A DNA stretch of 64,000 nucleotides, taken from NCBI RefSeq assembly GCF_009730915.1, contig NC_052473.1, positions 16,636,100 through 16,700,099 of the forward strand, in the 5' to 3' direction. Made by a program: the position numbers and the translations under genes. The stretch is from Dioscorea cayenensis subsp. rotundata (lineage: Eukaryota; Streptophyta; Magnoliopsida; Dioscoreales; Dioscoreaceae). Below are positions 5,758 to 27,831 of the stretch, one piece after another. The notes beneath the pieces are model-generated. The model was given only the letters and a program-made list of their open reading frames with translations. It was not told the origin of the DNA and searched no databases. Numbering within the stretch: position 1 is the first letter of the stretch; each line of letters starts with the position of its first letter.

Positions 5758-6190
5758 ATATGCATATGTATATACATACATACATTGAGAATTAATAAAG
5801 CGTTCCTTTGAACAACAGAAAAAGACACCAAGATATTATTTATAACCACATTAAAATAGAACCAACAAGTTTGACTCAGATGCACCAGTACAGAGTTAAA
5901 AAGTGATTGCCTCAAGAGAGGTATAGTAAATAGTGGATATGGCCAGCATTTTTATTAAATTATTGACTCAATGGATATTTTATCAGCAAGTATGTGCAAC
6001 AAATCAAATAAACAAGAGAAAACAATTGATGTACAAGAGTGTTAACAAGCTTGAGAATTTCTTCAGGCTTAACTGAATGTTCTCTCATGTGTTGAAACCA
6101 CAGCCAAAACCTGTACTAAGTAAGCTCCTGGTCAGCCTGAAGGTCAAACCACAGAATAAAGTTATTACCATAACATCATAAATAAATCCC

Positions 6191-6668
6191 AATGAAAAAC
6201 TTACTATAGCTGCTGTCATCACAAATTTGGGCAAGTCTTCATTTTACTGTTTACAAATATGATCACTTTGATTGATCCCACCTCCAACTGCAATCTAGAA
6301 AAAGAAAATGGCAACCATGTTTGATATTTCAATAGCAACATTTTTAGAACTGCCCTATGGGGATGTTTCATGACAATGCAATGCAGACAGCACAATGGCA
6401 GTATGCCAATGAAACAGCATACTCATGTGGAGGAGAAAACTAAATCAGGCTGACATTAAAACAATAATCAGGTAACTAAATCTGAGAACTATAGTGTAGT
6501 TGCCTCTTAAAATGATAGAGGCCGTATCGAACTTTTCATAGCCATTACTTGATAGGTCAATGCAGAACTTGTAGCGGAAAATGGAAAGAGGCTCAGTTTC
6601 ACCCTGCTATCAGGAAGATGATAATAAGCTGCAAATGGTAGCCAGCACAGTCTAGCTAGCCTTCCATG
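6191..6668. repeat. Segment inverted relative to 18013-18475
   Basis: This ~470 bp matches 18013-18475 in reverse orientation while flanking DNA on both sides matches in direct orientation. A third related copy (about 22620-23480) agrees with the orientation seen here, so the 18 kb copy is the rearranged one. Confidence 0.7.
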
Positions 6669-6853
6669 TTGCCTCGCCATCCATCTCCATTTCAATTTCA
6701 GGTTTTTCATATTTCTGCAAACTCTGGGCCCGTTTGGTAATTTCTTTATTTATTTATTTTTTTGTTGGGGGGTGGAAAGTAAAAGAACCATGGACTTTCT
6801 CTTTCCCTTCAATCCAAGCACAAGTTGGTTTTAGGGGATATCATCACAGCCTC
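6588..6853 (-). ncRNA. Box C/D-like RNA element, long form (266 nt)
   Basis: Read on the minus strand it starts GAGGCU-GUGAUGA (box C) and ends CUGA-GCCUC (box D), so six terminal bases pair (GAGGCU/AGCCUC). CUGAUAGCAGGGUGAAA lies just before box D, giving the C'-like UGAUA and a short possible guide. The inner hairpin is degenerate (GCAGCUUAUUAUC). Length is more than twice that of ordinary C/D snoRNAs. The 12399 element is related. Its duplicate at 18 kb is split by an inversion. Confidence 0.55.
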
Positions 6854-7483
6854 TTGAGACACATAAATGGAGACAAGAAAGAAGATGAAGATGAAGGAAC
6901 ACCAAAGTCATGTTTGGAACAATGGAATGCATGTACCAGCCTTGAATTGCTATTTTCACTTGAGGCAAAATTACAGAAATGCATGATGCCTTGACATATG
7001 TGATTATGCAAGCCACTTAAATGGATTTTTGGCAAAGATGAAGGATTAGACCGCTAAGGAAGGCAAAAAGTGGACGACCCTCGCCGGCGCAAGTGATAAC
7101 ATGGTCCACGCACATGTAGACACTAGAACCACCAGCACACAACCACTCCTCACACTCCCAGAAATATACTCCCACTTGTGATCCAAACTCTCACCACTAG
7201 TAAAAGGTTCTAACAGATCCAAACTACCAATATACCACTTAATCATTGATAAGCCACTAAAATGTATTACTTGCATGTATATATACACACCCAATAAAAT
7301 TTCAATTTGCGTGTATCTAAAATTCATAATAAAAGCCAAAGGTGAGCAAAATGCCTATTGCCCAATTGACACCAGTCCCTTGTGTAGGATGTCAAACACC
7401 TAAGTGAAGCAAGGTAAGAGCTCAGTGTGTTAAGATATTATTGTTGTTGTCCAGTGAAAAAGTATTCCCCAAATAGTTATGAC

Positions 7484-8065
7484 TACACCTGTCCAAGGGC
7501 CGGGCTACCCGCCCATGCCCAAAGGCCCGCCCGAAATTTGAGCGGGTTTGGACAAATATATAAGGCCCGATGTCCGGGCCTTGGACAAAAAAAAACCCGT
7601 TTTAAAAATGGGCCGGGTTTGGGTTTTGTTGTTAAAAGCCCGACCTGACCCGGCCCGGCCCGTATTATAAAATATATTTATTAATTAAGTTGGTATATAC
7701 TTATACAATATATATATATATATATATTTGATTGCCATTAATTATAATGATTTGAATTTTAGTTGTTTTAATTAAATAAAGATTTATATTTGGTATTTTA
7801 ACTTTTAAGTATTTTGTAGAACAATATTTGGTCATATCCACATATTAATAATATTGTTAATTTTTTTTTATAATTTATATATTATTTAATAAAAACTATT
7901 TGGGCGGGCTTGGGCGGGCCTTGGGTAGAGATCATTAAATTTGGGCGGGCTTGGACAAGGATTAAAGCCCGAATTTTCAGGTCGGGCCGGGCTTGGGCAA
8001 TGTTGAATTTTAGTAATTTTCATTCAAGCCCGGCCCGAACCCGGCCCGGCCCATGGACAGGTCTA
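7484..8065. mobile_element. Non-autonomous hAT element, GGCCCGGCCC-rich
   Basis: Ends read inward as TACACCTGTCCA and TAGACCTGTCCA, followed by GGGCCGGG repeats. The 8-bp target duplication GTTATGAC lies at 7476-7483 and 8066-8073. The paralogous position near 19120 (CCAAATAATAATGACTAATG) has no insertion and one copy of the target, so this element entered after the block duplicated. 582 bp, no transposase. Confidence 0.88.
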
Positions 8066-8279
8066 GTTATGACTAATGGTTGTTATTATTGATGTAATAT
8101 TATTCATTCATTTGAAAATACATCTCGTCTTCCTGTCATTCAACCAGGCAAAAGAAAACAGTTCCCCTTCCTTTTCTTCTTATTCTCATTTTTGAGTTTG
8201 TAGGGACATGGACACTCCTCAAACCCTCAACCTCTAATTAGGAAAGAGTGCTATTCAGTTCCCTCTGAGAGGAACAAGA

Positions 8280-8424
8280 GAGGTTCAGATTCAGTCCTTA
8301 TTATCAAACACAATTCAACAACCAGAATCAATGATGGCTGCAGTGGTGGCCTGTAGATTTGCAGGTCACCGGGGCTGCCACGCCATTTTAAACATAAAAC
8401 TTCAGGACAAATCATCACTACCTC
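8280..8424 (-). ncRNA. Box C/D-like RNA element (145 nt)
   Basis: On the minus strand: GAGGU then AGUGAUGA (box C); hairpin with AUGGC-GUG-GCAG on the 5' side and CUGC-A-GCCAU on the 3' side, extended inside by GGUG/CACC and CCUG/CAGG pairing; UUUGAUAA (C'-like); GGACUGAAU; CUGA (box D); ACCUC closing a five-pair terminal stem. The stem differs in sequence from that of the 8609 element but stays paired, which supports a functional RNA. Duplicate at 19802-19947. Confidence 0.68.
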
Positions 8425-8608
8425 TGAAAATGGTAGTCATGAACTAGATAAACTTTATAGGGTTTGCAAAATAAGCAAACCCTCATCTGACCTCAAATCT
8501 AATTCTGACCTCATTTGGATTATTATTATTATTGTCATTGTTGTTGTTGTCATCGACAATATGGTCTCTGTACTTTTGTTTCATTGTGTTCAAAAAAACA
8601 AGAAACAA

Positions 8609-8732
8609 GAGGCTCAGATGTGTAACCCTTTCTATCAGAGATAAACACTAAATCAAGGGCTGCAGCAGTAGCTGCCAAGCCACTTGATCTTGAGACTCTT
8701 GTAAGTATAATTGGGCAAATCATCACAGCCTC
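8609..8732 (-). ncRNA. Box C/D-like RNA element (124 nt)
   Basis: On the minus strand: GAGGCU-GUGAUGAUUUG at the 5' end, UCUGAUAGAAAGGGUUACAC before box D (CUGA), and AGCCUC at the 3' end, giving a six-pair terminal stem. The inner hairpin has GCAGC/GCUGC with a UACU loop. Best preserved of the short class; paralogues at 14960, 15425, 20116, 26381 and 26752. A (TGG)n tract lies just upstream (8776-8809 on the plus strand). Confidence 0.68.
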
Positions 8733-8861
8733 ACAGAGACATGGCCAACAACAATACAGTCGCAAGAGAACTAGGCCTCACCACCACCACCACCACCACC
8801 ACCACCACTACCAGCAGCAGCAGAGAAGATAGGGCTGCAAACGAGGTGCACATGAGCACAC

Positions 8862-8990
8862 ATTAATCCATCATACCACCAAGATCCCTCTTCTTTGGCC
8901 CCAATTATCTCCATAAGAACAGGAGCAGTGGTTTCCTGCAGAGAAGCAGGCCATCCAGATTCCAAACTGCTTCACCATGGCTACAAAGAG
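8862..8990 (-). ncRNA. Conserved segment H (unit B')
   Basis: A ~130-bp segment kept in all four transcription units (also 15661, 20301, 26989). On the minus strand it has GGATGGCCTGCTTCTCTGCA, a self-complementary GCCUGC...GCAGG hairpin followed by AACCACUGC. It resembles the C/D-element hairpin but has no clear box C or D. It could be an exon of the host transcript or another structured RNA. A reading frame containing GWPASLQETTAP exists in the two B units but is not kept in the A units. Confidence 0.4.
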
Positions 8991-9080
8991 ATAATAAAGG
9001 AACAAAGAAGATGATTCAAGGATAAAGATCTCTCTCTATCTCTCTCTCTCTCTCCGTCATCCTCATCCTCCTGCACTCGA

Positions 9081-9227
9081 GAGGAAACAATAAGCCCCTG
9101 GAGAGAAAACATGATTCATAAACAAGAATCAAAGATGGCTGCAGCGGTGACCTGTAGATTTGCAGCACACCAAGCTGCCCCGCCATTTCAATCCTCACAA
9201 AACTTACAGATGAATCATCACTACCTC
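9081..9227 (-). pseudogene. Degenerate box C/D-like element
   Basis: Box C with its stem strand (GAGGU-AGUGAUGA, minus strand, at 9227) and the full hairpin (AUGGC-GGG-GCAG / CUGC-A-GCCAU, with GGUG/CACC extension) are intact. Box D is gone: the expected position reads UGUUUCCUC. Duplicate at about 20470-20606 has also lost box D. Confidence 0.5.
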
Positions 9228-9515
9228 AAATTAAAAAAGAGGACAAACTTTGCTTGAATGCAACATTGAAAGTAACTAGCTCACTTAAACTCAGATCATT
9301 TGAATTCTTAAACGACATGTATTTTGGAATGGAGAGAGTATATAATTTGAATAGGAGACATCAAGATAACAGATAAGATTTTTGCAATTCAAATGGAAAG
9401 ATGGCAGATTTCAAGAAGATAGATGCAAATAGCCTTTTTTCTTTGTTTTCTCAATTTTTTCATCACTCAGAATGCACCATTGATTTCATTCTTGTTCTTC
9501 AGAGAAGAGAAGGCA

Positions 9516-9590
9516 GGCTCACATCTGCCCTTTTCATTTCATTAATGAAGAGCAAGAACCAAAGAAGCTGCTATAGTGACCAGGCCATTT
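9516..9590 (-). pseudogene. Partial box C/D-like element
   Basis: The 3' half is present: a hairpin remnant (AUGGCCUGG...UAGC-A-GCUUC), AAUGAAAAGGGCAGAU and a D box changed to GUGA before GCC. No convincing box C lies to the right. The duplicate at 20847 keeps CUGA. Confidence 0.4.
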
Positions 9591-9860
9591 GTTTTCCAAT
9601 TCTTGTACTTAATTTTTGTTTTCTAAGAGGCAGGCAAGGACATCCCAGAAACACTTGTTGAGAAAGGAGAAAGGGCCATAGAACAGGACTGGGGATCAAC
9701 GATGGAGGTGTCATGCACCTTAACACTTGTTGCAATTTCGTTTGGCAGTTATAAGAACATCTACATCACCTCCAAAAAGTGACAAGAGAGAGCAAGAAGA
9801 GCCGCTGCAGCAGCAATAGGAGGTGAGCAGGAATTACAGGGTTGAAGATAAGAGAGAACA

Positions 9861-9965
9861 GAGCTTTAGGACTACCAACCCTTCACACTCCTTTTCTCTC
9901 TTAGTCTCTTCAGAGCCCCTTCCCTATTGATTAAAGTGGCATAATTGCATATATCTATATAAAAC
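9861..9965 (-). promoter_or_regulatory. Putative leader/promoter region of unit B'
   Basis: Carries GGACTACCAACCCTT (plus strand), a motif kept in all four units (also 16080, 21197, 27402). To the right, a minus-strand TATA-like TTTTATATAGATATATGC lies at 9943-9963, with CACGTG at 9972-9977. I infer transcription leftwards; the start site cannot be fixed. Confidence 0.4.
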
Positions 9966-10017
9966 TCATCACACGTGATGATGATGAGTCACATAAGTCC
10001 ACTGACAGTGCTACAAC

Positions 10018-10054
10018 AAATGGCTGCAGACCACAACAATCTGCCACGCCATTT
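10018..10054 (-). ncRNA. Isolated conserved hairpin
   Basis: On the minus strand AAAUGGC-GUG-GCAG pairs with CUGC-A-GCCAUUU around an 11-nt loop: the array hairpin with its 3x1 internal loop, here without clear C and D boxes. The duplicate at 21384-21420 has lost part of the inner pairing. Confidence 0.45.
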
Positions 10055-11337
10055 TAACACGCGCACGTGCACGCAATGTGGCATCAGTAGTGTTCCATGC
10101 ATACACAAAGCCAATGTCAATGGGAAATAATAGAATTGTAGGAAACATTTCCATATAGCAGAATTGGTGAAAGATACAAAAGGGCCTTTAGTATAACAGT
10201 ATTGGCACTATTACTAAGCCTTGGTTTGCGGGACCCTTATTGCACAATTCAAAACACGCTAAATGCAGAATTGCCAAGGGTCCAACCCAATCCCCATGTC
10301 GGCCGGGTGGGGACAAACAAAGGATCCACAGTTCAATTATAAGACATTGTGCTTGTATCAAAATGTGGTGATGCTAGTTTAGGGAATTTCCATAAAGTCA
10401 GTAGAACATTTCCTGTTTAAGCAAAATTGACACAGAAATACCATGGCACCTACCTTGTATAGCTTAGGCATCAGGGAAAGTAACAGAACCAAATTTCCCT
10501 TTTGAGGAGGAGGCTGCCATTGTCATAAAGACCTATTGTTCAGACACATGACACTCAAATAATAAATGATTCGTATAGGAGAAGCATAATAAATTGTGAA
10601 TATTGGCAGTGTTGTACAGTTATAAAGTTACCCTACATAAAATATGAGTAAATACATCCTTATCGCTCATTATATTGAATAATATTAAATTGATGACTCA
10701 ATGATCAAAACTAACTGGCCAGCATTCTAAAAAGATCATAGAACGAATGAAGTTGTTAATTACTGAAGATTGTAACAGCAAGTTCCATAAACATCAAATC
10801 AGAAAAGGCTTAACAATCTAGCAAGATGATTGTAATACTCGAGGTTCTAAAATTCCTAAATAAACAATAATAAAAATGCTAGGAGCCAATCTATGGTGGG
10901 TTAGGCCAAATACGCGTACAAATAATTATAAGGAAATTTAGCACCAGAATGTACCAAATTTCACATATTGTGAACAAGGCTCGATGTTGTCTCATTTACC
11001 AAAACAACAGCTTTCATCTAAGCCACAGATCCCTTTGACCTGAAAAAGAAACCACATAACAACTTTAAAGTGGCAAAGCACCAAAATGCATAAAAAAAAC
11101 CATCACACCCGCATGTGCACACACATGCATGAATATAATCCATGTGCAAGAAGACCACTGGCCAGAATCTGGACATATAAAGGATAAGAGAAGGAAACTG
11201 TTCCCTTCTGTAACTTGAACAGTAAAGACACTCACTAACTTCTGCCATAGAGATCACAGATAGCAAAGTAGACTGGCGGGCCGCGGCAGCCACAGAAACA
11301 ACAATAACAACAACAACAACAACAACTTCAAGCATAA

Positions 11338-11478
11338 AGCTCATGTCTGACCTTGAATCAAACATACTACTGAAACAAGTATTAGCGATGGCTGCAAAAA
11401 TGGCATGGAGAGTCACCCCTCACCTTAGCTGCCCCGCGATTTAAATCTAACCCTCTTTGATATTAAATCATCACAGCT
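11338..11478 (-). ncRNA. Box C/D-like element, D box altered (141 nt)
   Basis: Starts AGCU-GUGAUGAUUU and ends AUGA-GCU on the minus strand; the terminal stem is the self-complementary AGCU. The hairpin is GCGGGGCAGCUAAGG with ...UGCAGCCAUC. Box D reads AUGA rather than CUGA, as in the paralogue at 24276. Possibly decaying. Confidence 0.5.
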
Positions 11479-11733
11479 GATCATAACACTCTTCTCCAAC
11501 ACAATGTGCATGATTTTTTAGAGACATGAAATTTTATGAGGATATTATGTAATTTCATGTTTTCAAAGATGTATGAAAATGTAATGAGCGGACGGAATCA
11601 AAATTGATATGTAATTTCATGCGTCAAACAATGTCCACTATTAAAGCTTGCCAACATATTTTGAAATAAACAAGAAAACTAGTGCTTCTTTCGGAAAAAT
11701 ATAAGTCACATACTTGCAACAAAAATAAAACAA

Positions 11734-11850
11734 GGCTCAGATTCGCCTTCTGCAAGTCACCTGATTCCAACCAATCACCATAGCTCAACCAATGCATTGG
11801 CTCTCAGGTACGTAAAGGTTGCAGCGGTTACCAGCTAGGTAACTGGCCAT
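11734..11850 (-). pseudogene. Partial box C/D-like element
   Basis: GGCTCAGATTCGCC at the left end (minus GGCGAAUCUGAGCC, box D intact) and a hairpin GGATGGCCAGTTACCTAGCT...AACCGCUGC like segment H. No matching box C strand found. Confidence 0.35.
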
Positions 11851-12156
11851 CCAAGCTGTTAGGCCATTTACATAACTGAGAGATCAACATGGTCAAGAGA
11901 TGCGGTCAGTAAAGCATCAATCACCTCCAAACATGCAAAATTTACATGCACTGGTGCTTAGCGTATCCTCATCGCCTCTAATGTGAGTGTGTTCACAAGT
12001 ATGCATGTGACAATGACCGAGGGCTAGCAGTTTTTGACAAATTGGCAACAACCACTCAGCATTTAATTGAATTTAAGAACATGCACAACTATGGAGGATA
12101 ACCGCAAGCTCAACAAAAACCTGTGCTCTCACCTGACGAATTTCTTAACTACTTCT

Positions 12157-12321
12157 TGTTGGAAATATAGTCCCACATCGGTTATGTGATAGAAGTGTAA
12201 TGGGTTTATATATGAATAGTATAAAAGTTGAGCCACCAAGTCTTGAGACTTTTTGGTGTAAGACCCCTAAGTTATGTAGCACCCATATAGGGCTCACTAG
12301 TACAAAATATAAAATCTAACA
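12157..12321 (+). mobile_element. Solo LTR of a TRIM-like element carrying a USE motif
   Basis: Begins TGTTGGAAATATAG and ends ATCTAACA (TG...CA). Flanks CTTCT and ATTCT match at 4 of 5 positions. It contains GTCCCACATCG (12170-12180), identical to the upstream sequence element of plant snRNA promoters, and TTTATATATG about 25 bases later. 165 bp; no internal region or second LTR, and no counterpart near 23.6 kb, so it is a copy-specific insertion. Confidence 0.75.
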
Positions 12322-12398
12322 ATTCTTATCAAAAACAAGATTCATCAAACCAAAAAATAATCTGAATTTTAGAAGATGTAAATATTGAAGGAATTGAA

Positions 12399-12601
12399 AG
12401 GCTCAGAACCACCCTTTAATATCAGTCACATTGGCCATTATCCCAAAGGATAAAAAATAATAATAATAAGAAGAAGAAGAAGAAGAAGAAAATGAAAATG
12501 AAAATGTAGTGCCAACTTACTGAAATCTCTTAGCAACATATGGCTGCAGGTCAACACAACCTGCCCCGCCACAATTGGCATAGGGTTGTTCATCACAGCC
12601 T
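12399..12601 (-). ncRNA. Box C/D-like RNA element, long form (203 nt)
   Basis: On the minus strand: AGGCU-GUGAUGA (box C), hairpin GUGGC-GGG-GCAG / CUGC-A-GCCAU, a purine/AT-rich insert (the GAA/AAT repeats near 12465-12510), CUGAUAUUAAAGGGUGGUU, then box D CUGA and AGCCU. The terminal stem is five pairs. The insert suggests that spacing between hairpin and box D is not constrained. Confidence 0.6.
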
Positions 12602-13052
12602 CTAGGACACAAGGATTTAAACATATTTAAGTCCTATAGAAGGCTTCTACAACAATAGAATATGATTCACTCAATCCAGAAAGAACGACAAAGAATGTCA
12701 ACTGCACCTTCCAACTGCTATTTCCAGTGGTAGTGAAATAACAAACAGCTGAAAAGTCGCACTTGGCAGTTGCGCCACTCCCGGGCATAACTATAACAAA
12801 AAAAGGAAGATCTTGGGGGAAAAAGAGTGCCACCATGTGCACAAACATGCATGAATACAATCCATGTCCAAGCGGAACTATTAGGAAGAATCCGCACATA
12901 GAATAAGAGAAGGAAGTTATTCCCCTTTGCAACTTGAACGGCAAAGGCACTCACTAACTTACGCCACAATGGCAACACAGTGAGCAAAGAAGACTGCCAG
13001 GCGGCAGCAGCATTAACAATAATAACAACAACTTCAACAACTTCAAACATCA

Positions 13053-13192
13053 AGCTCAGATCTGACCTTGAATCAAACATAATGCTGAAACAAGTATTAG
13101 GGATGGCTGCAGAAGCAGCATGGAGAGTCACCCCTCACCTTAGCTGCCCTGCCATTTAAACAAGTATTAGGGATGGCTGCCATCTAGTCACA
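13053..13192 (-). pseudogene. Box C/D-like element with broken box C
   Basis: Box D (CAGAUCUGAGCU, minus strand) and a long hairpin (AUGGC-AGG-GCAG ... CUGC-A-GCCAU) are intact, but the box C end is replaced by a short direct repeat of AAGTATTAGGGATGGCTGC and reads GUGUGACUAGAUGG. Paralogue of 11338 and 24276. Confidence 0.45.
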
Positions 13193-13319
13193 CAGTACTC
13201 TCCTCCAACACAATGTGCATGATTTTTGTCCAGAGACATGAAATTTTATGAGGTTATTATGTAATTTCATATTTCCAAAGACGTGTGTGTGACCGGAGAG
13301 CTGAAATCAAACTACTACT

Positions 13320-13910
13320 ATCTTATTTTTCTAAACCAAAGGGATGACACTGAGATAGGTAGAGGTAGAAATTTTCAATACCTAAGCTCTCTAATCTAAG
13401 ATAACAGGGAACTTACAGAAGATGTCATAAATAGTATCCAAGCAAGATGACTAAAATTAAAAAGAGCTTCTAAAGTTTTACGTGGCCATAAAATACCTCT
13501 TAGATTGAAATTTTATAGAATAGTTGTTAGGCCAAGTATAATCCAAGGGCCTAAATATTGGGTGGTTAAAAAATAATATACATAAAGAATAGTCATGGCT
13601 GAGAATGTTAACATGGCGTCATCTGTAAGTAGGAAGAACAGATTAATAAATGAATTTATCCAAAATAAAATGAGAGTGACACCTATTACTAATAAGAAAA
13701 AACTGATTAAGATGGTCTTGACATGTCCTTACAAATAAGGTTAATGCCCTCTGAAGAAAAATGGAAGCTCTTCAAGGGGAGAGTTATAGACAAGAAATAG
13801 AAGTACTTAAAAAAGTATTCGGTAGAAAATTTACAACATGATATCTAAGCTTGGTTAATCTAGCCTTTTCACTTATGAAAGAGCACCGTGGAAGCGAAAA
13901 ATTAATCTAC
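13320..13910 (+). mobile_element. LINE reverse-transcriptase relic
   Basis: Translated pieces such as FYRIVVRPS and YWVVKK correspond to the FYRTVVRP...YG..CWAV region near the end of plant LINE reverse-transcriptase proteins. They are interrupted by stops and frameshifts. The duplicate at 24660-25250 shows it was present before the block duplicated. Confidence 0.6.
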
Positions 13911-14118
13911 TGTCATTAATTCAGGAATACAATTTTCTCAATAAAAAGTCACCTAGCATAGAAGATAAATAAGATATGTACAATTATTAAAGGTCAGCAA
14001 TTGTCACTACTGAAGATTTCATGGAGATTTATGAAATAACACTCTCCATTATTTTGCCTACTTCCACTAAACACATCACTTATTTGCCACGCTTCCATGT
14101 ACTACAAAGAAGAAAGCC

Positions 14119-14467
14119 AAGGCTCAGATCCACCCTTTTCATCACATTAATACAAAATACGAACCAAATATGGCTGCTGTAGTGATCAGCCCTGCCATTT
14201 CTTTTTCAATTCTTGTTTCCATGATCCAAACGCAACCTAAATTTTGGCTTCTAAGATGCATAGCAAAGGCAAAGACCCGCAGAACTCAGTTCGGCCAAAT
14301 GTATATAAGGATTCAACACAATAGCTTAAGCTAATAGTGTGAAAGACACAGACTTACATATCCATATTAATAAGTACCAAATTTAATGAAGGGTGACAAT
14401 TAAATACTACGACAAAGGAGTCATACCATTTGAACACAGGAACTCAAGGGTGAATCATCCCTGCCTC
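14119..14467 (-). ncRNA. Box C/D-like element, longest form (349 nt), weakened box C
   Basis: Hairpin AUGGC-AGG-GCUG / CAGC-A-GCCAU: the inner pairs are swapped relative to other copies (GCAG/CUGC) but remain complementary. GUGAUGAAAAGGGUGGAU then CUGA lies at the 3' end. Box C reads GGGAUGA in GAGGCAGGGAUGA. The duplicate at 25557 keeps GUGAUGA. Confidence 0.5.
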
Positions 14468-14586
14468 TAAAGACAAAATAAAATTGAGAGACCACAAATC
14501 AATAAAAAAAGGGCAAACTGAACCCCATGCCTTCTTAAGAAATTGAATAATATCAGAGTCATTGTTAATTTCCTCAAAGAAAAAGG

Positions 14587-14865: not shown

Positions 14866-14959
14866 ACACACACACACACACATAATTGAAGTTTGGACCT
14901 TAGATAGCATTGCCTTCTTTCTTTGCCTTCATCATTTACTGAGAAACCAAGAGGCAATA

Positions 14960-15360: not shown

Positions 15361-15387
<27 letters not shown>
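15361..15387. repeat. (AG)n microsatellite
   Basis: About 13 AG units between two C/D-like elements. Confidence 0.9.
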
Positions 15388-15391
<4 letters not shown>

Positions 15392-18640: not shown

Positions 18641-19149
18641 GACACCTGAATGGAGACAAGAAAGAAGATGAAGAAACACCAAAGTCACAGTTTGGAGCAA
18701 TGGAATGGATGCAAATGGAGTGCAATGTTCTAGCCTTGGATTGTTATTTTCACTTGAGGCAAAATTACAACATATGTGATTATGCAAGAGCTAGACCGCT
18801 AAGAAAAACAAGGGAGTGCAACTATCACCACACTTGTGAAAGTTTTTAACGGGGCCCGGGTACCAATAGACCATTTCGTCGTTGGTAAGCCATTAAAATG
18901 TATTACTTGCATGTATATATACACACCCAATAAAATTTCCACTTGCATACATATCCCTATAAAACTCATAATAAAAGCCAAAGGCGAGCAAAATGACTAT
19001 TGGCCTTTTTGGCACTGAGTCCCTTACATAGGGTGTCAAACACTGACGCCACGCAAGGTCAGAGCAAATATGTGTTAAGATATTGTTGTTGTTGTTTAGT
19101 AAAATAGTATTTCCCAAATAATAATGACTAATGGTTGTTATCGTTTGGA

Positions 19150-19523
19150 GTAAATTTTTTAATGACACCAAACTATGATCATTTTTCATTTTGGAGTCCA
19201 AACTTCAATTTGAATCAAATTGGTTACCATACTTCAATTTTGTTTCATGGAATGATCACCTGAGAGATTCAAACTTATTTTTTATGATATATATGCCTGA
19301 AATTCTCTGTCATCATACATGACACGCTGCCTATTCAACTGATAATTTTATCTAACCTGCTGATTGAGAATTTTTGACATTACATCATCAAAAATAACTC
19401 GGAATCTATTGGATGATCCTATGGTGAAACAAAATTGAAGTTGAGTAATCATTTTGATTCAAATTGAAGTTTGGACTTCGAAATAAAAAACTGTCAGTTT
19501 AATGCCCTATCAAAAAATTTACC
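19150..19523. mobile_element. MITE with long inverted repeats (Mutator-like ends)
   Basis: Left end GTAAATTTTTTAATGACACC and inverse of right end GGTAAATTTTTTGATAGGGC; inside, long arms pair (TCCAAACTTCAATTTGAATC against its inverse near 19460). Absent from the corresponding place in block copy 1 (after 8090). The target duplication is imperfect. Confidence 0.6.
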
Positions 19524-19801
19524 TTAATTGTTAATGTAATCCATCTTTTTCATTCATTTGAAGATACATCTTTTTATTTTTCCCTTCATTCAACCAAGCA
19601 AAAGAAAACAGTCCCCTTCCTTTTTCTTCTTCTTCTCATTTTTAAGTTTGTGAGGGACATGGACAAGCCTCCTCAAACCCTCAACCCCAAATTCGGGAGG
19701 GGAGTGCTATTCATTTCCCTTCTAACTTCATTTATCATCAATCAATACCTTCCTTAGCTATGATTGCCATCAGATCAATTCCTTCTGAGAAGGACAAGAG
19801 C

Positions 19802-19947
19802 GAGGTTTAAGACTCAGTCCTTTTTATCACACAGTATTCAATAACCAGAATCAAAGATGGCTGCAGTGGTGGCCTGCAGATTTGCAGGTCACCAGGGTTG
19901 CCACGCCATTTTAAACCTGAAACTTGAGGACCAATCATCACTACCTC
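19802..19947 (-). ncRNA. Box C/D-like RNA element (146 nt)
   Basis: Partner of 8280-8424. Terminal stem GAGGU/ACCUC and box C AGUGAUGA are intact, as is the extended hairpin. Box D at the expected place reads CUUA; a CUGA lies six bases upstream. Confidence 0.5.
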
Positions 19948-20115
19948 AGAAAAATGAAGTCATAAACTAGATAAACTTTATAGGGCTTGCAAATAAACAA
20001 CTCCTCTTCTGACCTCATTTGGATTATTATTATTATTATTGTTGTTGTTCTTGTTGTTGGCAATATTGTCTCTGTTTTTTTGCTTCATTGTGTTCAAAAG
20101 AAACAAGAAACAAGA

Positions 20116-20233
20116 GGCTCAGATGCAACCCTTTCAATCAGAGATAAACACTAAATCAGGGGCTGCGGCAGTAGCTGCCATGCCACTTGATCTAGAGACT
20201 CTTGTAAGGCCATTTGGGCAAATCATCACAGCC
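20116..20233 (-). ncRNA. Box C/D-like RNA element (118 nt)
   Basis: Partner of 8609-8732: GGCU-GUGAUGAUUUG at the 5' end, CUGAUUGAAAGGGUUGCAU then CUGA-GCC at the 3' end. Hairpin GGC-AUG-GCAGC / GCCGC-A-GCC. Compared with 8609 the stretch just before box D differs (GUUGCAU against GUUACACAU). Confidence 0.62.
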
Positions 20234-20300
20234 GCATTGAGACATCACCAAGAGCATTGCCATCGCAAAAGAACTAAGCCTCGCCACCATCACCACCACC

Positions 20301-20422
20301 ATTAATCTATCATACCACCAAGATCCCTCTTCTTTGGCCCCAATTATCTCCAGAAGAACAGGAGCAGTGGTTTCCTGCAGAGAAGCGGGCCATCCAAACT
20401 GCTTCACCATTGCTACAAAGAG
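20301..20422 (-). ncRNA. Conserved segment H (unit B)
   Basis: Counterpart of 8862-8990, with GGATGGCCCGCTTCTCTGCA on the minus strand. See that entry for the structure and for the reading frame shared only by the B units. Confidence 0.4.
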
Positions 20423-20469
20423 ATAAGAAAGGATGGAGATATCATTTAAACATGTACATTTACATCTTG

Positions 20470-20606
20470 CCCCCCTTTTTTATCAAACATAATTCAGAAA
20501 CAAGAATCAAAGATGGCTGCATTGGTGGCCTGTAGATTTGAAACACACCAATCTGCCCTGCCATCTTACTCCTCGCAAAAACTTACAGATGAATCATCAC
20601 CACCTC
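20470..20606 (-). pseudogene. Degenerate box C/D-like element
   Basis: GAGGU-GGUGAUGA at the box C end and a recognisable hairpin; no box D at the left end. Partner of 9081-9227. Confidence 0.45.
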
Positions 20607-20846
20607 AAGTTCAAAAAAGAGGACAAACTTTGCTTGAATGTAACATTGAAAGTGACTAGAAGCGCCTGAAAACTGACTCATTTGAATATTCGACATCATG
20701 ATAACAGAGAAGATTTTTGCAATTCAGATGGAAAGATGGCAGATTTCAGGAAGATAAATGCAAATAACCCTTTTTTTCACTTTCTCTATTTTTCATCACT
20801 CAATGCACCATTGATCTCATTCTTGTTATTCAGAGAAGAGAAGACA

Positions 20847-20921
20847 GGCTCAGATCTGCCTTTTCCATCTCATTAATGAAGAGCAAGAACCAAAGATGCT
20901 GCTGTAGTGACCAGGCAATTT
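20847..20921 (-). pseudogene. Partial box C/D-like element
   Basis: Box D end AAGGCAGAUCUGAGCC is intact and CUAC-AGC-A-GC hairpin remnants are present, but no box C is found. Partner of 9516-9590. Confidence 0.4.
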
Positions 20922-21188
20922 GTTTTCCAATTCTTGTACTTAATTTTGTTTTCTAAGAGGCAAGCAAGGGCATCCCACAAACATTTGTTGAGAAATGAGA
21001 AAGGGCCATAGAACAGGAATGGGGATCAAGGATGGAGATGTCATGCACCTTAACACTTGTTGCAATTGCATTTGAGAGTGATAAGGCATCTCCATTGCCT
21101 CCAAAAAGTGATAAGAGAGAGAAAGAAGAGCAGCTGCAGCAGCAATAGGAGGTGAGAAGTAATCACCGGTTGAATATAAGAGAGAGCA

Positions 21189-21305
21189 GAGCTTTAGGAC
21201 TACCAACCCTTCACACGCTACTTTTCTCTCTTAGTCTCGTCAGAGCCTCATCCTATTGATTAAAGTGGCATAATTGCATATACATATATATATATATCCA
21301 TATAA
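21189..21305 (-). promoter_or_regulatory. Putative leader/promoter region of unit B
   Basis: GGACTACCAACCCTT at 21197-21211 (plus strand), and to its right a minus-strand TTTTATATGGATATATATA at about 21287-21306. Partner of 9861-9965. Confidence 0.4.
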
Positions 21306-21383
21306 AACTCATCTCGCATGATGATGATGAGTCATATGACTGCAAACGAGGGCAAGGCGATTGTCCATTGACAGAGCTACAAC

Positions 21384-21420
21384 AAATGGATACAGACCAC
21401 AACAATCTACCACGCCATTT
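21384..21420 (-). ncRNA. Isolated hairpin, weakened
   Basis: Partner of 10018-10054; AAAUGGC-GUG-GUAG against CUGU-A-UCCAUUU keeps most but not all pairing. Confidence 0.3.
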
Positions 21421-22663
21421 AAAAAACACACAAGTTCGCAATGTGACATCAGTAGTGTTCCATGCATACACAAAGCCGATGTCCATGGGAAACAATAGAA
21501 TTTTAGGAAACATTTCCATATAGCAGAATTGGTGAAAGATACACAAGGGCCTTTAGTCCAGCAATATTAGCACCATTGCGTAAGCCTTGGTTTGCGGAAC
21601 TTTTATTATACAATTCGAAACATGCTCAACACATCAATGCCAAGGGTTCCCGGCTATGGGAGTAAGTTTGCAAACCAATCCTCATGCCGGCCCGGGTGAG
21701 ACAAACAAAAATCTATAGTTCAATTATAAGACATTGTTCTTGTACCAAAATGCGGTGATATTAGTTTAGGGAATTTCCGTAAGTTAGTAGAACACTTCCT
21801 GTTTAAGCAGAACTGACACAGAAGTACCATGGCTCCTACCTAGAACTAAAGCTTAGGCATCATGATATGTTTAATTAGAGAAAGTAACATAACCAAATTT
21901 CCCTTTTTTTTAGAGGAGGGGGCTGCCTTTGTCACAAAGACCAATTGCTCAGACACATGACACTCAAGTAACAAATGATTCGTATAATAGAAGCATAATA
22001 AATTGTGAATACTGGCAGTGCTGTACATTTATGCAGTTACCTACATAAAATACAAGTAAATACATCCTAATCGCTCATTATATTGAATAATATTAAATTG
22101 TTGACTCAATGATCAAAACTAACAAGCATTCTAAAAAGATCATAGAACAAATGAAGTTGTTAATGACTGAAGATTGTAACAGCAAGTTCCATAAAAATCA
22201 AAGAGCCAAATCATAAGAAAGTGCCATTCTGGTTCTTAAAGTTCACAAGAATGATCAAATCAGTAAAGGCTTAACTTAACAATCTAGCAAGATGATTGTA
22301 ATACTCGAGGTTCTGAAATTACTAAACAAACAACAATAAATATACCAGGCACCAATCTATGGTGGGTTAGGCAAAATACGACGTGGTTGGTACAAATAAT
22401 TATAAGGAAATTGAGCACCAGAATGTACCAAATTTCACATATCATGAACAAGGCTTAATGTTGTCTCATTTGCCAAATCGACAGTTTTCATTGAAGCCAC
22501 AGATTCCCTTGATTGATCTGAAAAAGAAACCACATAACAACTTTAAAGTAACAAAGCACCAAAATGAACAAAGAACTCACCAGTAATGGGATCACAAATT
22601 TAGTCAAATACATGGCAAACTGGTTTTTGCTTCGATAGAAACACTGCAGTACTGCCCTATGCG

Positions 22664-23374
22664 CATGGTTTTTAAAATCGGATGAGGCGTGCGCAAGGAA
22701 ACAGCCTCAAGGCGAGGCGCAAGGAAACAGCCTCAAGGCGAGGCGCAAGGAAACAGCCTCAAGGCGTGCCTTGAGGTTGAAAACTGAGGCTTAAGCCTCA
22801 CTGTCCTGAGGCGCACGCACTGAGGCGCACCGCCTCAGTGCATGTGAGGCTTAAGCCTCAAAAATCCTGATTTTTGTAATATCATTTTAATTTTTAAAGC
22901 AAATAAAAAATATTTATATGTATATACTTTCATTAATAAAAACTTATATATGTAAAATTCAATAAAAAAACTCATCAACACTTATGATCAAGTAGTACAT
23001 ACCAATTTAATTTTTTAATCTAAAGATTATGTAAAAATGACAAAATTTATCAAAATAAACTACAAATAAGATAAGATGAGTTACAAATAAAATGGGTTAC
23101 AAATAAGTTAAGATGGGTTAAAAATAAGATAAGTTATAATTTTATTAATTTTTTTTATAAACTATTTATTTTATAAATAAAATAATATATTTTAATCAGA
23201 TAAAATAAGTTTGAAAAAATAATTTATTTTATAAATAAAAATAATATAATTATTACTTTGTATTTGGTAGATAATATTATTGTTGTTTTTTTTTAAAAAA
23301 AAAAATTGAGGCTTACGCCTCGCCTCACGGTTGAGAAACGCCTCGAAACCCGCCTTGGGTTTTTAAAAACCTTG
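22664..23374. mobile_element. Non-autonomous hAT element with internal 26-bp repeats
   Basis: Ends read inward CATGGTTTTTAAAA and CAAGGTTTTTAAAA, flanked by the 8-bp duplication CCTATGCG at 22656-22663 and 23375-23382. Three tandem 26-bp units (GCGCAAGGAAACAGCCTC...) occupy 22691-22768; the core is AT-rich and the right end again has GCCTCGCCTC. Absent from block copy 1. 711 bp, no transposase. Confidence 0.85.
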
Positions 23375-23789
23375 CCTATGCGTTCATCACGACTGGTGCT
23401 GATGGCACAATGCAAGAAACAATGAAATGCAACTGAAACAACACATTCTTGAAGAGGAGAAACTATAAGAAAATAACACTTTTTGATGGGAACTGTAGAC
23501 AAGGAATGAAAATACAGAGGAAAACTGTATCCTAATGTTTATATAGATAAACAACCGAAATGGATAAGAAAAATAAAGAAATACCAATTTCAAAGAAAAT
23601 CAATTATTTAACAACATGCATCACAGAAGAGACTGCATAAATAAATAAGAAAAAAGGCATTCTAAATCATAGTAAACCATCAAAGTTACTTTAAGAGCGG
23701 GGGGTAATACTCAAAAACCAAGGGGTGGCAAGTAAAAAAACCACTTCCATTTCTATTCTCCACAATCCTAACACAACTTAACTTGAGGA

Positions 23790-23804
23790 GAAATCATCAG
23801 CCAC
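23790..23804 (-). pseudogene. Orphan box C end of a long C/D-like element
   Basis: GUGGCUGAUGAUUUCUCC on the minus strand matches the box C end of 6588-6853. No box D partner remains to the left, where the hAT element sits. Confidence 0.4.
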
Positions 23805-24275
23805 TTGATACTCATAAACTGTGACAAAAAGGAGGTAAAGATGGAAAAGACCAAACTTATAACTGGTACAATGGAAAGAAAACAAAAGAATGTCGCCTGC
23901 AATCTCCAACTGTTATTTTCACTCGTGTAAAATAACAAACAGCTGCCAAGTGGCACTTGGAAGTTGCACCACTCCTGGGAATACATCTAACCAAAAAAAA
24001 ACACACAAATTATAGGTCTTATATAGAACGTCTCGAAAAAAAACCATCACACCCACATGTGCACACGCACTCGCATGAATATAATCCATGTGCAAGCAGA
24101 CTACTGGCCAAAATCTGGACATAAAAGGATAGGAGAAGAAAACTGTTCCCTTTTGTAACTTGAATGGTATAGGCACTCACTAACTTACACCATACTGAGG
24201 TCACAGTCAACAAAGTAGTCTGGCTGGTTGCGGCAGCTGCAAAAACAACAATAACAACAACAACTTCAAGTATAA

Positions 24276-24406
24276 AGCTCATATTTGACCTTGAATCAAA
24301 CATAATACTGAAACATGCATTAGGGATGGCAGCAGAAATGACATGGAGAATCACCCCTCACCTTAGCTGGCCCGCCAATACTCTTTGAGGTTAAATCATC
24401 ACAGCT
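24276..24406 (-). ncRNA. Box C/D-like element, D box altered (131 nt)
   Basis: AGCU-GUGAUGAUUUAACC at the 5' end and GGUCAAAU-AUGA-GCU at the 3' end; terminal stem AGCU/AGCU. Hairpin UUGGC-GGG-CCAG with CUGC-UGCCAU is partly rearranged. Partner of 11338, sharing the AUGA form of box D. Confidence 0.5.
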
Positions 24407-24659
24407 GGTCATAGTACTCTTCTCCAACACAACGTGCATGATTTTTTAAAGAGATGAAATTTTATGAGGTTATTATGTAATTTCATGTTTCCAAAGATGT
24501 ACATAAATGTCACGAGAGGGCCGAAATCAAAATTCATATATTATTGTCAACGACCTCTTAGTTTATTGGCATCAAGTCTCCGGCACATGGTGCATTAAAG
24601 CATTAATGCCACGCTTGTGCACACTCCAAATGTGGCTTATCCAATTTGTAAAAAAAAAT

Positions 24660-25250
24660 GATAAAAATAAAAATAATTAATATTATCTTATTTTTCTAAA
24701 TCAAAAGGATGATACAAGATTGGTAAACATAGAGAATTTCACTACCTAAGCTCTCTAATCCAAGATGATGGGGAAATTATAAAAGACATCACAAATAATA
24801 TTAAAGCAAGTTGGCTAAAAACGAAGAGGACCTTCTAAAGTTTAATGTGATAGTAGAATACCTCTTAAATTGAAAACATGTTTTACAGAACAGTCGTTAG
24901 ACCAATAAAGTACGGGCTACAATGTTGGGTGGTTAAAAGATATCAAATATAAAGAACAGGCATGGCTGAGATAAAAATGCAGAGATGGACGTCATGTGTA
25001 ACAAGAAAAAAAGCATTAAGAAATGTATTTATCCAAAACAAATTGTGAATGACACCTACTAGTGACAAATTAAGAGAAAACCGAGTAAAATGGTACAAAA
25101 CAAGTAGATGCTTTACGATGAAGCGCGGAAGCTTTTCAAGTGGAGAGTCATAGACAAAGAAGTTGTCAACTTCAAAAGTATTTAGTAAAAAATTTACAAA
25201 AATGATATTCTACGCTTACTTTATCTCACCTTTTGACTTATGTTAGAGCA
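24660..25250 (+). mobile_element. LINE reverse-transcriptase relic
   Basis: FYRTVVRPIKYGLQCWVV is readable near 24880, followed by MAEIKMQRW near 24962: the typical tail of plant LINE reverse-transcriptase proteins. Frameshifts and stops are present. Partner of 13320-13910. Confidence 0.7.
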
Positions 25251-25556
25251 GATAATTAAGACTAACAGCTGCATATTGTTCTTTGGTTTTTTCCTAAACC
25301 ATCACTTGCTTAGGAATGCAATTTTCTTCCTTAAAAAAAGCCACCACTTGGGAAAATTTTCTTCCTTAAAAAAAGTCACCTAGGAGCAGAAGAAATAAAT
25401 GGGAAATGTGCCATTATTAAAGTGTCAAAAGATTGTCACTCCTGAAGATTTAATGGAGATTTATGAAATAGCACTCTTCATTATTTTGCCTACTTTCCAC
25501 CAATCCAAACACATGACTTACTTGCCACGCTTACAAGTACTTCAAACAAGAAAGCG

Positions 25557-25899
25557 GAGGCTCAGTTCCACCCTTTTCATCACATAAATACAAAATTAGA
25601 ACCAAATATGGCCACTGAAGTGATCAGCCCCGCCATTTCTTTTTCAAAGCTTGTTTTCATGATCCAAATACAACCTAAATTTTGTTTCTAAGATGCATAG
25701 CCAAGGCCAAAACGTACAGAACACAGTTCAGACAAATACATATTGGGTCCAATTCAACACAATAGCTGATTGCATGAGAGAAGACTTATAAATTCATATT
25801 GATAAGTACCAAATTTACTGATAGCAGATTATTAAATACCACAACATAGGTGTCCTGGCATTTTAACACAGGAATGCAAGGGTGAATCATCACTGCCTC
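25557..25899 (-). ncRNA. Box C/D-like RNA element, long form (343 nt)
   Basis: Minus strand: GAGGC-A-GUGAUGAUUCACC (box C); about 240 nt without clear structure; hairpin AUGGC-GGG-GCUG / CAGU-G-GCCAU; GUGAUGAAAAGGGUGGAA; CUGA (box D); GCCUC. The terminal stem is five pairs. Both boxes and the C'-like GUGAUGA are canonical, so this is the best preserved long form. Confidence 0.58.
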
Positions 25900-26015
25900 A
25901 TAAAAACAAAGAATGGAATTGAGAGGCCACAAATCAATAAGAAACAAGATAAACTGAACCCCTTGCTTTCTTAAGAAAATAGATAACATCAAAGTCATTG
26001 TTAATTTCCTCAAAG

Positions 26016-26250
26016 GAACATTGACCTGAGCTTTCTATCAAAAAGAACGCAGAATTAATGAATGGCTAAACATTGATCTGACCTTTTTACCATCCTTCTT
26101 ATGTGAAGGTGATCTACACACCCTTTCAAAACAAGAGCAATTAGGAAACAATGCAAGAAAATAAAGCGTTAGAGAGGACTTGAAATCTCACTCTTATGAT
26201 TCATAGCAACCAAGTTGCTGTCTCCAGCCATGGACAAACACATCACAGCC
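26016..26250 (-). pseudogene. Degenerate box C/D-like element
   Basis: Box C end GGGCU-GUGAUGUG (one base from canonical) at 26240-26250; box D end reads GGUCAGAUCAAUG. Hairpin mostly lost. Partner of 14587-14865. Confidence 0.3.
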
Positions 26251-26380
26251 CACACACATAGATAATTGATGCTTGGAAATTTGATAGATCCATTTTTTAT
26301 TTATTTATTTATTTATTTTTGATTGTATCACCTCCTTTTTCTTTTTCCTTCATCATTTTCAGAGGAACCAAGGGGCAATA

Positions 26381-26484
26381 GGCTCAGATCTGACCTTTTT
26401 ATCAGAGATAAACACTGAATCAAGGGCTGCAACAGTAGCTGCCACGCCACTCGATTTAGGCTTTTGGGGCAAATCATCACAGCC
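26381..26484 (-). ncRNA. Box C/D-like RNA element (104 nt)
   Basis: Minus strand GGCU-GUGAUGAUUUGCC; hairpin GGC-GUG-GCAGC / GUUGC-A-GCC; CCUUGAUUCAGUGUUUAUC; CUGAUAAAAAGGUCAGAU; CUGA; GCC. Partner of 14960-15074. GAAAATGATGAAGG just past box D is also shared with 14960 and 26752. Confidence 0.65.
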
Positions 26485-26539
26485 AAGCGAACACAAACAA
26501 GAAGCATTGCCATTAATAAGCATAAGCATCATCCCTCAT

Positions 26540-26600
26540 AGAGAAGAGGCTCGGATTCACCATTAATCCATGATACCACCAAGACCCCTCCTCTTCACAC
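26540..26600 (-). pseudogene. Fragment of segment H left end
   Basis: GAGGCTCGGATTCACCATTA...CCATGATACCACCAAGAC repeats the left part of 26975-27010 and stops abruptly: a partial tandem duplicate. Confidence 0.4.
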
Positions 26601-26649
26601 ATAATTGAAGTGTGGAATTTGGATGACTTTATTTATTCTATTTTATTTC

Positions 26650-26651
<2 letters not shown>

Positions 26652-26687
<36 letters not shown>
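26652..26687. repeat. (TA)n microsatellite
   Basis: About 18 TA units. Confidence 0.9.
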
Positions 26688-26689
<2 letters not shown>

Positions 26690-26751
26690 GATAGCATTGC
26701 ATCCTTTCCTTTCCTTTCCTCCATCATTTTCAGAAGAATAAAGAGGGAAAA

Positions 26752-26860
26752 GGCTCAGATCTGACCTTTATTATCAGAGAGAAACACTGAATCAAGGACT
26801 GCAGCAGTAGCTGCCACGCCACTTGATCTCGAGGCAGTTCTACCGCAAATCATCACAGCC
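26752..26860 (-). ncRNA. Box C/D-like RNA element (109 nt)
   Basis: Minus strand GGCU-GUGAUGAUUUGCGG; hairpin GGC-GUG-GCAGC / GCUGC-A; CCUUGAUUCAGUGUUU; CUGAUAAUAAAGGUCAGAU; CUGA; GCC. Almost unchanged from 15425-15535, whereas nearby spacer differs, which hints at constraint or recent conversion. Confidence 0.66.
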
Positions 26861-26988
26861 AAGCGAACACGAGCGCAACATCGCCATTAATAAGCATCAT
26901 CATGATCATCATCATCATCATCATCATCATTGGTAGCAATAGTACCAGAGGGTTCAAATCCCTCATACAGAAGAGGCTCGGATTCGCC

Positions 26989-27126
26989 ATTAATCCATGA
27001 TACCACCCACCAAGACCATTCCTTTTCTCCCACAACACACCAACCCCTCCCTCTACGAGAACGGGAGCAGCGGTTGCCTGCTAAAGAGCAGGCCATCCGA
27101 GCCGCTACACCATCGCTACAGAGAGA
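26989..27126 (-). ncRNA. Conserved segment H (unit A)
   Basis: Counterpart of 15661-15796 and almost identical to it. The plus-strand T-arm-like GAGGG-TTCAAAT-CCCTC stem-loop at 26948-26964 is also conserved. Confidence 0.42.
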
Positions 27127-27393
27127 GAAGAGAGAGCAGCAAAGAAGAGGAATCGATCAACGATGGAGACATCATACACACCTTCACACGCTGCGATCGC
27201 ATTGGAACGTGATTAGGGCATCGTCATGGCCTCCAAAGCAAGACAAGAAACAGAGAAGCAGAAGCAAAAGCAGCAGCAGCAATGGAATGGAATGGAAAAA
27301 GGAAAGAGAAGAGCATGGCGCCATGAGATGAGGAGGAATCACAAAGAGCTTGAAGATAAGAGAGAAGAGAAAGCGGCGAAGAAGAAGAGGGCA

Positions 27394-27544
27394 GAGCTTT
27401 GGGACTACCAACCCTTTTTTCCGCAGCGCTCTCTGTTGCTCTTCATCTCGTCTTTTGAGAGTCCTCACTCAGCAAATGGGCAAAGATTAATGAAGACATT
27501 TGCTTGGTATTTATAGAGGAAAAAAAAGGCTGTGTGACTAGTCA
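27394..27544 (-). promoter_or_regulatory. Putative promoter and leader of unit A
   Basis: Minus-strand TATA box CTATAAATACC (27507-27516), upstream palindrome GTGACTAGTCAC (27533-27544) next to TGGGCT (a site II-like element, plus strand), and downstream leader motif GGACTACCAACCCTT (27402-27416, plus strand). Matches 16072-16224. Confidence 0.55.
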
Positions 27545-27831
27545 CTGGGCTCTACCATTGTTTCATCTTTTGGAAATGTTAAAAAACAATAAAAAGTGGT
27601 CTATTCAGGTCTGAATCCTCGTTGAAACTCTTTAGCCAGCAGTCATGAAATCCCATTACAATCCTTTTACCCGGTAAGAATTCAGGGGTTATTTGGTTGG
27701 CATTAGTGAAATGGGAGGACTGTAAACACTTATTTGGGTGTGAAATAATGGAAGTGGGAGAGCATTGATTAAGATATACGAAAGTTTTGAGTAAAAAGTT
27801 ATAAATCACCTCAAAATTGACGGGTTGTTTG

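What the first reader, a model, noticed from the sequence alone, without database searches (positions are those of the whole stretch)
5916..27560. Array of box C/D-like RNAs of an unrecognised family
Seen: at least ten minus-strand elements share a terminal stem, box C GUGAUGA, an internal hairpin, a C'-like UGAUA and box D CUGA; about a dozen more are decayed. All lie in two related ~10 kb blocks with no convincing protein gene. Known: plants often carry C/D snoRNAs in polycistronic clusters, and mammals have orphan C/D arrays in host transcripts. Inference: a lineage-specific orphan C/D RNA array. The elements (104-349 nt) are longer than most C/D snoRNAs and share a hairpin ordinary guides lack.
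Basis: partly seen in the sequence, partly recalled or inferred. Interest (0 to 1): 0.88.

Follow-up and report, generated by a model that had tools for sequence, protein, structure and literature searches.

The report
Plant array of C/D-like structured RNAs
A stretch of plant DNA carries a duplicated, partly decaying series of related non-coding elements that look like an unusual form of box C/D small nucleolar RNA; whether they are made and what they do is not yet known.

Summary
In two paralogous ~10 kb blocks, 11 minus-strand elements have exact GAUGA (box C) and CUGA (box D); 18 further copies are decayed or divergent. Nine pass a strict kink-turn test (0 on the plus strand; 0.48 expected). 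A second hairpin recurs with compensatory changes. Since the blocks duplicated, structural sites changed less (31/304) than the rest of the same elements (63/410) or spacers (542/3547). No Rfam family reaches threshold; no 8-bp match to a yeast-like rRNA precedes a main box D in the 16 elements that have one. Best reading: long, orphan, perhaps non-guide box C/D RNAs from a noncoding precursor. Expression, protein binding and occurrence elsewhere are untested; the genome search did not complete.

The parts
6650..16240 (-). Block A: array unit, 5' end of the presumed transcript at the high-coordinate side
   Evidence: A/B alignment
18460..27560 (-). Block B: paralogous array unit
   Evidence: A/B alignment
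16186..16193 (-). TATA box (TATAAATA) heading block A
   Evidence: that it is a promoter is inference
27508..27515 (-). TATA box (TATAAATA) heading block B; Site II motifs at 27546 and 28237 and a telo-box at 28262 lie within 1 kb upstream
   Evidence: that it is a promoter is inference
15423..15537 (-). Element A15.5, boxes intact
26750..26862 (-). Element B26.8, boxes intact
14958..15076 (-). Element A15.0, boxes intact
26379..26486 (-). Element B26.4, boxes intact
14119..14467 (-). Element A14.4 (long type; 11 pairs possible in the inner stem; box C GGGAUGA)
25557..25899 (-). Element B25.9 (long type), boxes intact, first inner pairs broken
12398..12602 (-). Element A12.6, boxes intact
8609..8732 (-). 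Element A8.7, boxes intact
20114..20235 (-). Element B20.2, boxes intact
8280..8424 (-). Element A8.4, boxes intact, stem I GAGGU/ACCUC
6588..6853 (-). Element A6.8, boxes intact; its B counterpart is broken by an inversion
15645..15912 (-). Element A15.9, type II, box C UGACGA with box D CCGA
26973..27233 (-). Element B27.2, type II, same box pair as A15.9
11732..11978 (-). Element A12.0, divergent box C GAUGAGGA, box D intact
9514..9772 (-). Element A9.77, decayed boxes
20845..21101 (-). Element B21.1, box C decayed, box D intact
11336..11480 (-). Element A11.5, box C intact, box D AUGA
24274..24408 (-). Element B24.4, box C intact, box D AUGA
10020..10052 (-). Element A10.0: only the conserved hairpin is recognisable (inner stem GCAGA/UCUGC)

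Best explanation
The blocks encode noncoding precursor RNAs, transcribed on the minus strand from a TATA promoter (inferred), that carry up to about a dozen long box C/D-type elements each. Each intact element folds (inferred from pairing) into stem I, a kink-turn made by boxes C and D, and an inner stem that in part of the elements takes up the bases normally used as the box D guide; a second hairpin with an asymmetric internal loop (usually 3 nt against a single A) stands inside. By knowledge of box C/D RNPs, the kink-turn would bind Snu13/15.5K, then Nop56/Nop58 and fibrillarin, which would protect and release each element. Because the guide position can be paired and no rRNA match was found, the likeliest role is non-guide: the RNP would present the conserved hairpin to another protein or RNA, in the manner of U3 rather than of a methylation guide. 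Shown here: elements, boxes, pairing patterns, strand bias, slower change at structural sites. Inferred: transcription, processing, protein binding and function.
For: Strict kink-turns 9 minus / 0 plus against 0.48 in shuffles. Box C/D arms, 17 rows: 4 of 8 pairs with changes on both sides, 0 of 500 shuffles reach this; cells paired 85.3% against 81.5%, 2 of 500. Hairpin, 23 rows: 9 cells changed on both sides, 3 of 500 shuffles reach this; its fifth inner pair occurs as CG, AU, GC and UA. Cognate inner arms pair better than non-cognate (-7.9 against -5.6 kcal/mol; mean permutation p 0.002, worst choice of representatives 0.022). UGAU (C') in 11 of 11. Within-block BLAST matches: 29 of 34 on the same strand, several ending exactly at the box C border of elements. 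Structural sites 31 of 304 changed between A and B in four distal pairs, rest of those elements 63 of 410, spacers 542 of 3547; in all six pairs 32 of 475 against 73 of 613. Plus-strand A over T in the array (0.35 against 0.26-0.28) matches the T-rich sense strand of three nearby genes; three other stretches show A about equal to T.
Against: No expression data. Constraint since the block duplication is modest, and 18 of 29 copies are decayed or divergent. Arms and hairpins were delimited by eye. The inner stem is uneven: the best 3' partner of a 5' arm is of its own type in only 6 of 19, and 9 of 19 cognate arms are weaker than -7 kcal/mol. In the hairpin, two of five measures do not exceed shuffles (126 and 154 of 500) and the fifth inner pair is unpaired in 10 of 23; in the arms, 'further pair types' is not exceptional (59 of 500). 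Relatedness of copies inflates such counts. Stem I has only 3 contiguous pairs in five of the nine strict elements. Free folding of ten elements gives z-scores of -0.3 to -3.3 and mostly not the proposed fold. The C'-to-D spacing is that of a normal guide. Block A has neither Telo-box nor Site II within 1 kb upstream.
Confidence: 0.42

Rival explanations
1. Ordinary 2'-O-methylation guides, whose targets are plant rRNA positions, snRNAs or mRNAs not represented in the yeast-like rRNA used here. The bases between C' and D would be the guide, and their pairing with the bases after box C would be incidental.
For: C' starting 16-24 nt before box D in 11 of 11 fits a 10-15 nt antisense element before box D as described for plants in PMC5122169 (passages). 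Plants carry many clustered guides (same paper). The inner stem is weak in many copies.
Against: No contiguous 8-bp match before the main box D of 16 elements; longest complementarity 11.0 nt against 10.8 (sd 0.2) in 10 rounds of shuffled elements. Average preference for cognate pairing of the same bases with the box C side.
Confidence: 0.24
2. A tandemly duplicated lncRNA gene whose repeated exon or intron modules contain kink-turn-like structures that are never excised; the whole transcript, or nothing, is the functional unit, and the array is mostly decaying.
For: Many broken copies; divergence of element interiors equal to spacers; 5' part nearly identical between blocks including non-element sequence.
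Against: Boxes, C' and hairpin persist between copies whose remaining sequence aligns poorly; slower change at structural sites.
Confidence: 0.22
3. Dispersed transposon family, for example a foldback or MITE-like element with short terminal inverted repeats.
For: Ends GAGGC...GCCTC are a short inverted repeat; copies vary in length.
Against: No consistent target-site duplication at 14 elements, longest shared flank word 2-6 nt; no hairpin-model match outside the blocks at E up to 10 and no element-derived BLAST match of block A outside them. Both cover only 64 kb.
Confidence: 0.06
4. Precursors of small silencing RNAs (miRNA-like hairpins).
For: Arms of about 20 nt pair imperfectly in several copies.
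Against: The arms change, with compensation in stem I and the first inner pairs, instead of keeping one 21-nt sequence; the best kept bases are those of box C, C' and D; Rfam matches to miRNA families in the array are only to the GC-rich repeat at 7978-8053.
Confidence: 0.05

Closest known systems
U3 snoRNA (C'/D kink-turn domain)
   Same: Long box C/D RNA with kink-turns in which fibrillarin is not positioned for methylation (PMC7277114 Figure 5 legend, seen)
   Different: No Rfam match; [quoted passage not shown] here an array with TATA boxes on a presumed long precursor (inferred)
SNORD115/SNORD116 orphan C/D arrays of mammals
   Same: Many paralogous orphan C/D units in one host transcript region (recalled; PMC11662933 and PMC3792690 seen only as search listings with the start of the abstract)
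   Different: Plant locus; longer elements (108-349 nt) with an additional conserved hairpin; guide position paired in part of the copies
Plant polycistronic C/D snoRNA clusters
   Same: Clustered box C/D units under a polymerase II promoter (PMC4660826 passages; PMC5122169 passages)
   Different: Units here are one divergent family without a match to yeast-like rRNA; Telo-box and Site II only upstream of block B
snoZ242 (RF00441), 198-nt C/D RNA
   Same: Full-length weak alignment to the decayed copy B6.8 (20 bits; E 0.83 for the array; E 0.01 for the stretch alone)
   Different: Far below the gathering score of 90; the intact paralogue A6.8 does not match it, though its box C end weakly matches two other C/D families, sR33 and SNORD104 (16.8 and 14.5 bits, below threshold)

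Membership tests
[quoted passage not shown]
   Of 11 elements chosen for exact GAUGA and CUGA, 10 carry GUGAUGA, A14.4 has GGGAUGA; the other 18 of 29 copies lack one or both exact boxes
Box C/D snoRNA | Kink-turn: stem I, 3-nt bulge, tandem G.A pairs, inner stem | tested here: met
   9 strict kink-turns against 0.48 in shuffles; sequence only, no structure probing
Box C/D snoRNA | C' and D' boxes | tested here: inconclusive
   C' UGAU in 11 of 11; no consistent D' seen by eye
Box C/D snoRNA | Antisense element before D or D' matching rRNA or snRNA | tested here: inconclusive
   No match of 8 bp or more before the main box D of 16 elements against yeast-like rDNA; 9-10 nt matches at minor CUGA sites of A6.8 and B20.6; plant rRNA and snRNA not available; no positive control run
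Box C/D snoRNA | Binding of Snu13, Nop56, Nop58 and fibrillarin; stable RNA | not testable with these tools
   needs RNA and protein experiments
Plant polycistronic snoRNA gene | TATA promoter with Telo-box and Site II within 1 kb | tested here: inconclusive
   TATA in both; both motifs upstream of B, neither upstream of A; chance of both in 1 kb estimated by hand at about 0.05 from window frequencies
snoZ242 (RF00441) | Rfam gathering score 90 | tested here: not met
   20 bits at one decayed copy
Dispersed DNA transposon | Target-site duplication | tested here: not met
   No consistent flanking repeat at 14 elements
Dispersed DNA transposon | Copies elsewhere in the genome | tested here: inconclusive
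   None seen in the rest of 64 kb; the genome search did not complete

The most novel reading that the evidence does not exclude
A new kind of plant noncoding RNA: kink-turn-closed, non-guide box C/D RNAs in which the guide site is sealed by the inner stem and a second conserved hairpin is the working part, amplified into an orphan array, like those of mammalian imprinted loci, under one promoter.
Probability: 0.18. Interest if true: 0.8.

Novelty: new variant of a known kind. Interest (0 to 1): 0.5.

Why it matters
Orphan C/D arrays are best known from imprinted loci of mammals (recalled). A plant array of long C/D-like RNAs with a conserved extra hairpin, and in part a sealed guide position, would be an independent case; with natural intact and broken copies side by side it would allow a direct test of what such arrays do.

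Tried and rejected
Rfam at E up to 10 for the array: 7 weak matches, among them snoZ242 at a decayed copy, all below gathering scores. A scan of viral contigs for a 16-mer of the element: 31 stretches, in which no second element feature was sought. A protein search with the plus-strand open frame 26906-27328 in the hope of related loci: 70 candidates, none at E 1e-3. Two open frames in A11.5/A13.2: differences by codon position 34, 26, 24 of 125, 125, 123; no coding signal. Guide search against rRNA: negative at main D boxes. Strand test by wobble: 17 G.U against 10 A.C cells, in the expected direction but weak. The hairpin model at E up to 10 found 13 of its own 23 training rows; the 10 missed include the long-loop types and A6.8. 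A full-length MAFFT alignment misplaced the hairpin 3' arm between short and long types, so trimmed arms were aligned instead. Literature searches listed no description of such a family; listings and passages only, so this is no proof that none exists.
Full report
Setting. The window is plant DNA: a gene piece at 34 kb belongs to Pfam DUF1068, and the named relatives in its protein search are plant proteins. Open frames near 42.8 kb and 60 kb look like an ABHD17-type hydrolase and a callose synthase from recall; Pfam did not match those fragments. The species is not known.

Observation. Twenty-nine copies were read out on the minus strand. Eleven have exact GAUGA and CUGA. A strict kink-turn pattern occurs nine times on the minus strand of the array, never on its plus strand and once in the rest of the window; 300 shuffles give 0.48 on average and 3 at most. 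UGAU starts 16-24 nt before box D in 11 of 11; 23% of 32-nt windows of that strand hold it by chance.

Block history. Blocks A and B are a duplication with an inversion of the far 3' part, which splits the B copy of A6.8 (and reading of the sequence). Inside each block there is older duplication: of 34 listed matches 29 run on the same strand, and the 5 inverted ones lie outside elements. Several end exactly at the box C border of elements, such as 8306-8424 with 9107-9227 and 9107-9221 with 11360-11474. A LINE-like remnant near 13.3-13.9 kb and 24.7-25.2 kb, judged by eye, is shared by both blocks.

Anatomy. Reading the boxes as a kink-turn gives GAGGC-UGU-GAUGA ... CUGA-GCCUC. Stem I changes in step: GAGGC/GCCUC becomes GAGGU/ACCUC in A8.4, and AGC/GCU in A11.5 and B24.4. 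In type II copies A15.9 and B27.2 the U.U pair becomes C.C (UGACGA with CCGA). Counted on 17 trimmed rows, 4 of 8 pairs show changes on both sides, which 0 of 500 shuffles reach. Beyond the kink-turn the bases after box C can pair with those before box D, up to 11 pairs with wobble in A14.4 (GAUUCACCCUU/AAGGGUGGAUC). Cognate arms average -7.9 kcal/mol against -5.6 for arms of different types; with one representative for each of ten types the mean permutation p is 0.002 and the worst 0.022. This is an average: 10 of 19 cognate arms reach -7 kcal/mol, and the best partner is of the own type in only 6 of 19 (A15.0, A14.4, B25.9, A12.6, B21.1, B19.9). Arm lengths were set by eye. Rechecking this made me lower the best explanation from 0.45 to 0.42 and the novel case from 0.20 to 0.18, and raise ordinary guides from 0.22 to 0.24.

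Second hairpin. The consensus is GGC-NNN-GCAGC...GCUGC-A-GCC. On 23 trimmed rows the inner pairs 3, 4 and 5 change on both sides in 9 cells (3 of 500 shuffles reach this), the fifth pair being CG, AU, GC or UA; it is unpaired in 10 of 23. The number of pairs so changed (3) and of pair types (11) is not exceptional (126 and 154 of 500). A covariance model of these rows gives 16 places at E up to 10: 14 on the minus strand of the blocks (E up to 3.7), one on the plus strand at the inverted piece of the A6.8 copy (E 6), and one more on the plus strand at 11275 (E 6.9). Most are training rows; 10 of 23 training rows were not found.

Selection. In four distal A/B pairs structural sites differ at 31 of 304, the rest of the same elements at 63 of 410, and spacers without the LINE remnant at 542 of 3547; in all six pairs 32 of 475 against 73 of 613. 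A hand calculation gives z about 2.4 for structural sites against spacers and 2.0 against the rest of the elements. Constraint is modest.

Transcription. On the plus strand the array has A 0.35-0.36 and T 0.26-0.28; three genes of the window are T-rich on their sense strand (their names partly by recall), and three other stretches are balanced. TATAAATA occurs four times on the minus strand of the array span; two of them, 16186-16193 and 27508-27515, head the blocks, the others are at 16603 and 22911. Upstream of B lie two Site II motifs and a telo-box within 1 kb, upstream of A neither; these motifs mark plant snoRNA promoters (PMC4660826, passages).

Guides. A yeast-like rDNA found inside a bacterial record (L036; so judged from recalled 5.8S words) stood in for plant rRNA. 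Of 22 elements tested, 16 have a main box D; no contiguous match of 8 bp or more precedes it. At minor CUGA sites A6.8 has 9-nt matches in 18S and in the first spacer, and B20.6 a 10-nt match in the first spacer. The longest complementarity with one wobble is no longer than in shuffled elements (11.0 against 10.8). Plant rRNA and snRNAs could not be tested, and no known snoRNA was run as a positive control.

Known families. Nothing in Rfam reaches its threshold. PMC5122169, PMC8413462, PMC4660826 and PMC7277114 were read in passages; other papers were seen only as listings. The architecture most resembles U3, whose structure leaves fibrillarin out of position for methylation (PMC7277114 Figure 5 legend).

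Verdict. A real family of box C/D-like elements, best read as long orphan C/D RNAs with a possible non-guide role. The step from sequence to RNA is inference.

Noticed in passing
window 7474-8075: GC-rich inverted repeat rich in GGCCCGG, weakly like MIR8757; present in block A and not aligned in block B.
   Followed up: partly
window 12155-12318: Looks like a solo LTR of a small retrotransposon (TGTTGG...TAACA) with a GTCCCACATCG motif, inside block A; read by eye.
   Followed up: no
window 13310-13960 and 24650-25250: LINE-like reverse transcriptase remnant shared by both blocks, 100-column windows 68-81% identical; named by eye.
   Followed up: partly
window 15444-16238 and 26771-27560: The 5' part of both blocks is nearly identical (seven of eight windows 90-100%) while most of the rest is 72-96%: gene conversion or strong constraint.
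   Followed up: partly
window 22675-22860: Short tandem and inverted repeats (GAGGCGCAAGGAAACAGCCTCAAGGC) in block B, in a stretch that does not align with A.
   Followed up: no
L032-L038: Eukaryotic ribosomal DNA, judged by a conserved 18S end, inside records deposited as bacterial genomes or MAGs; one looks yeast-like.
   Followed up: partly
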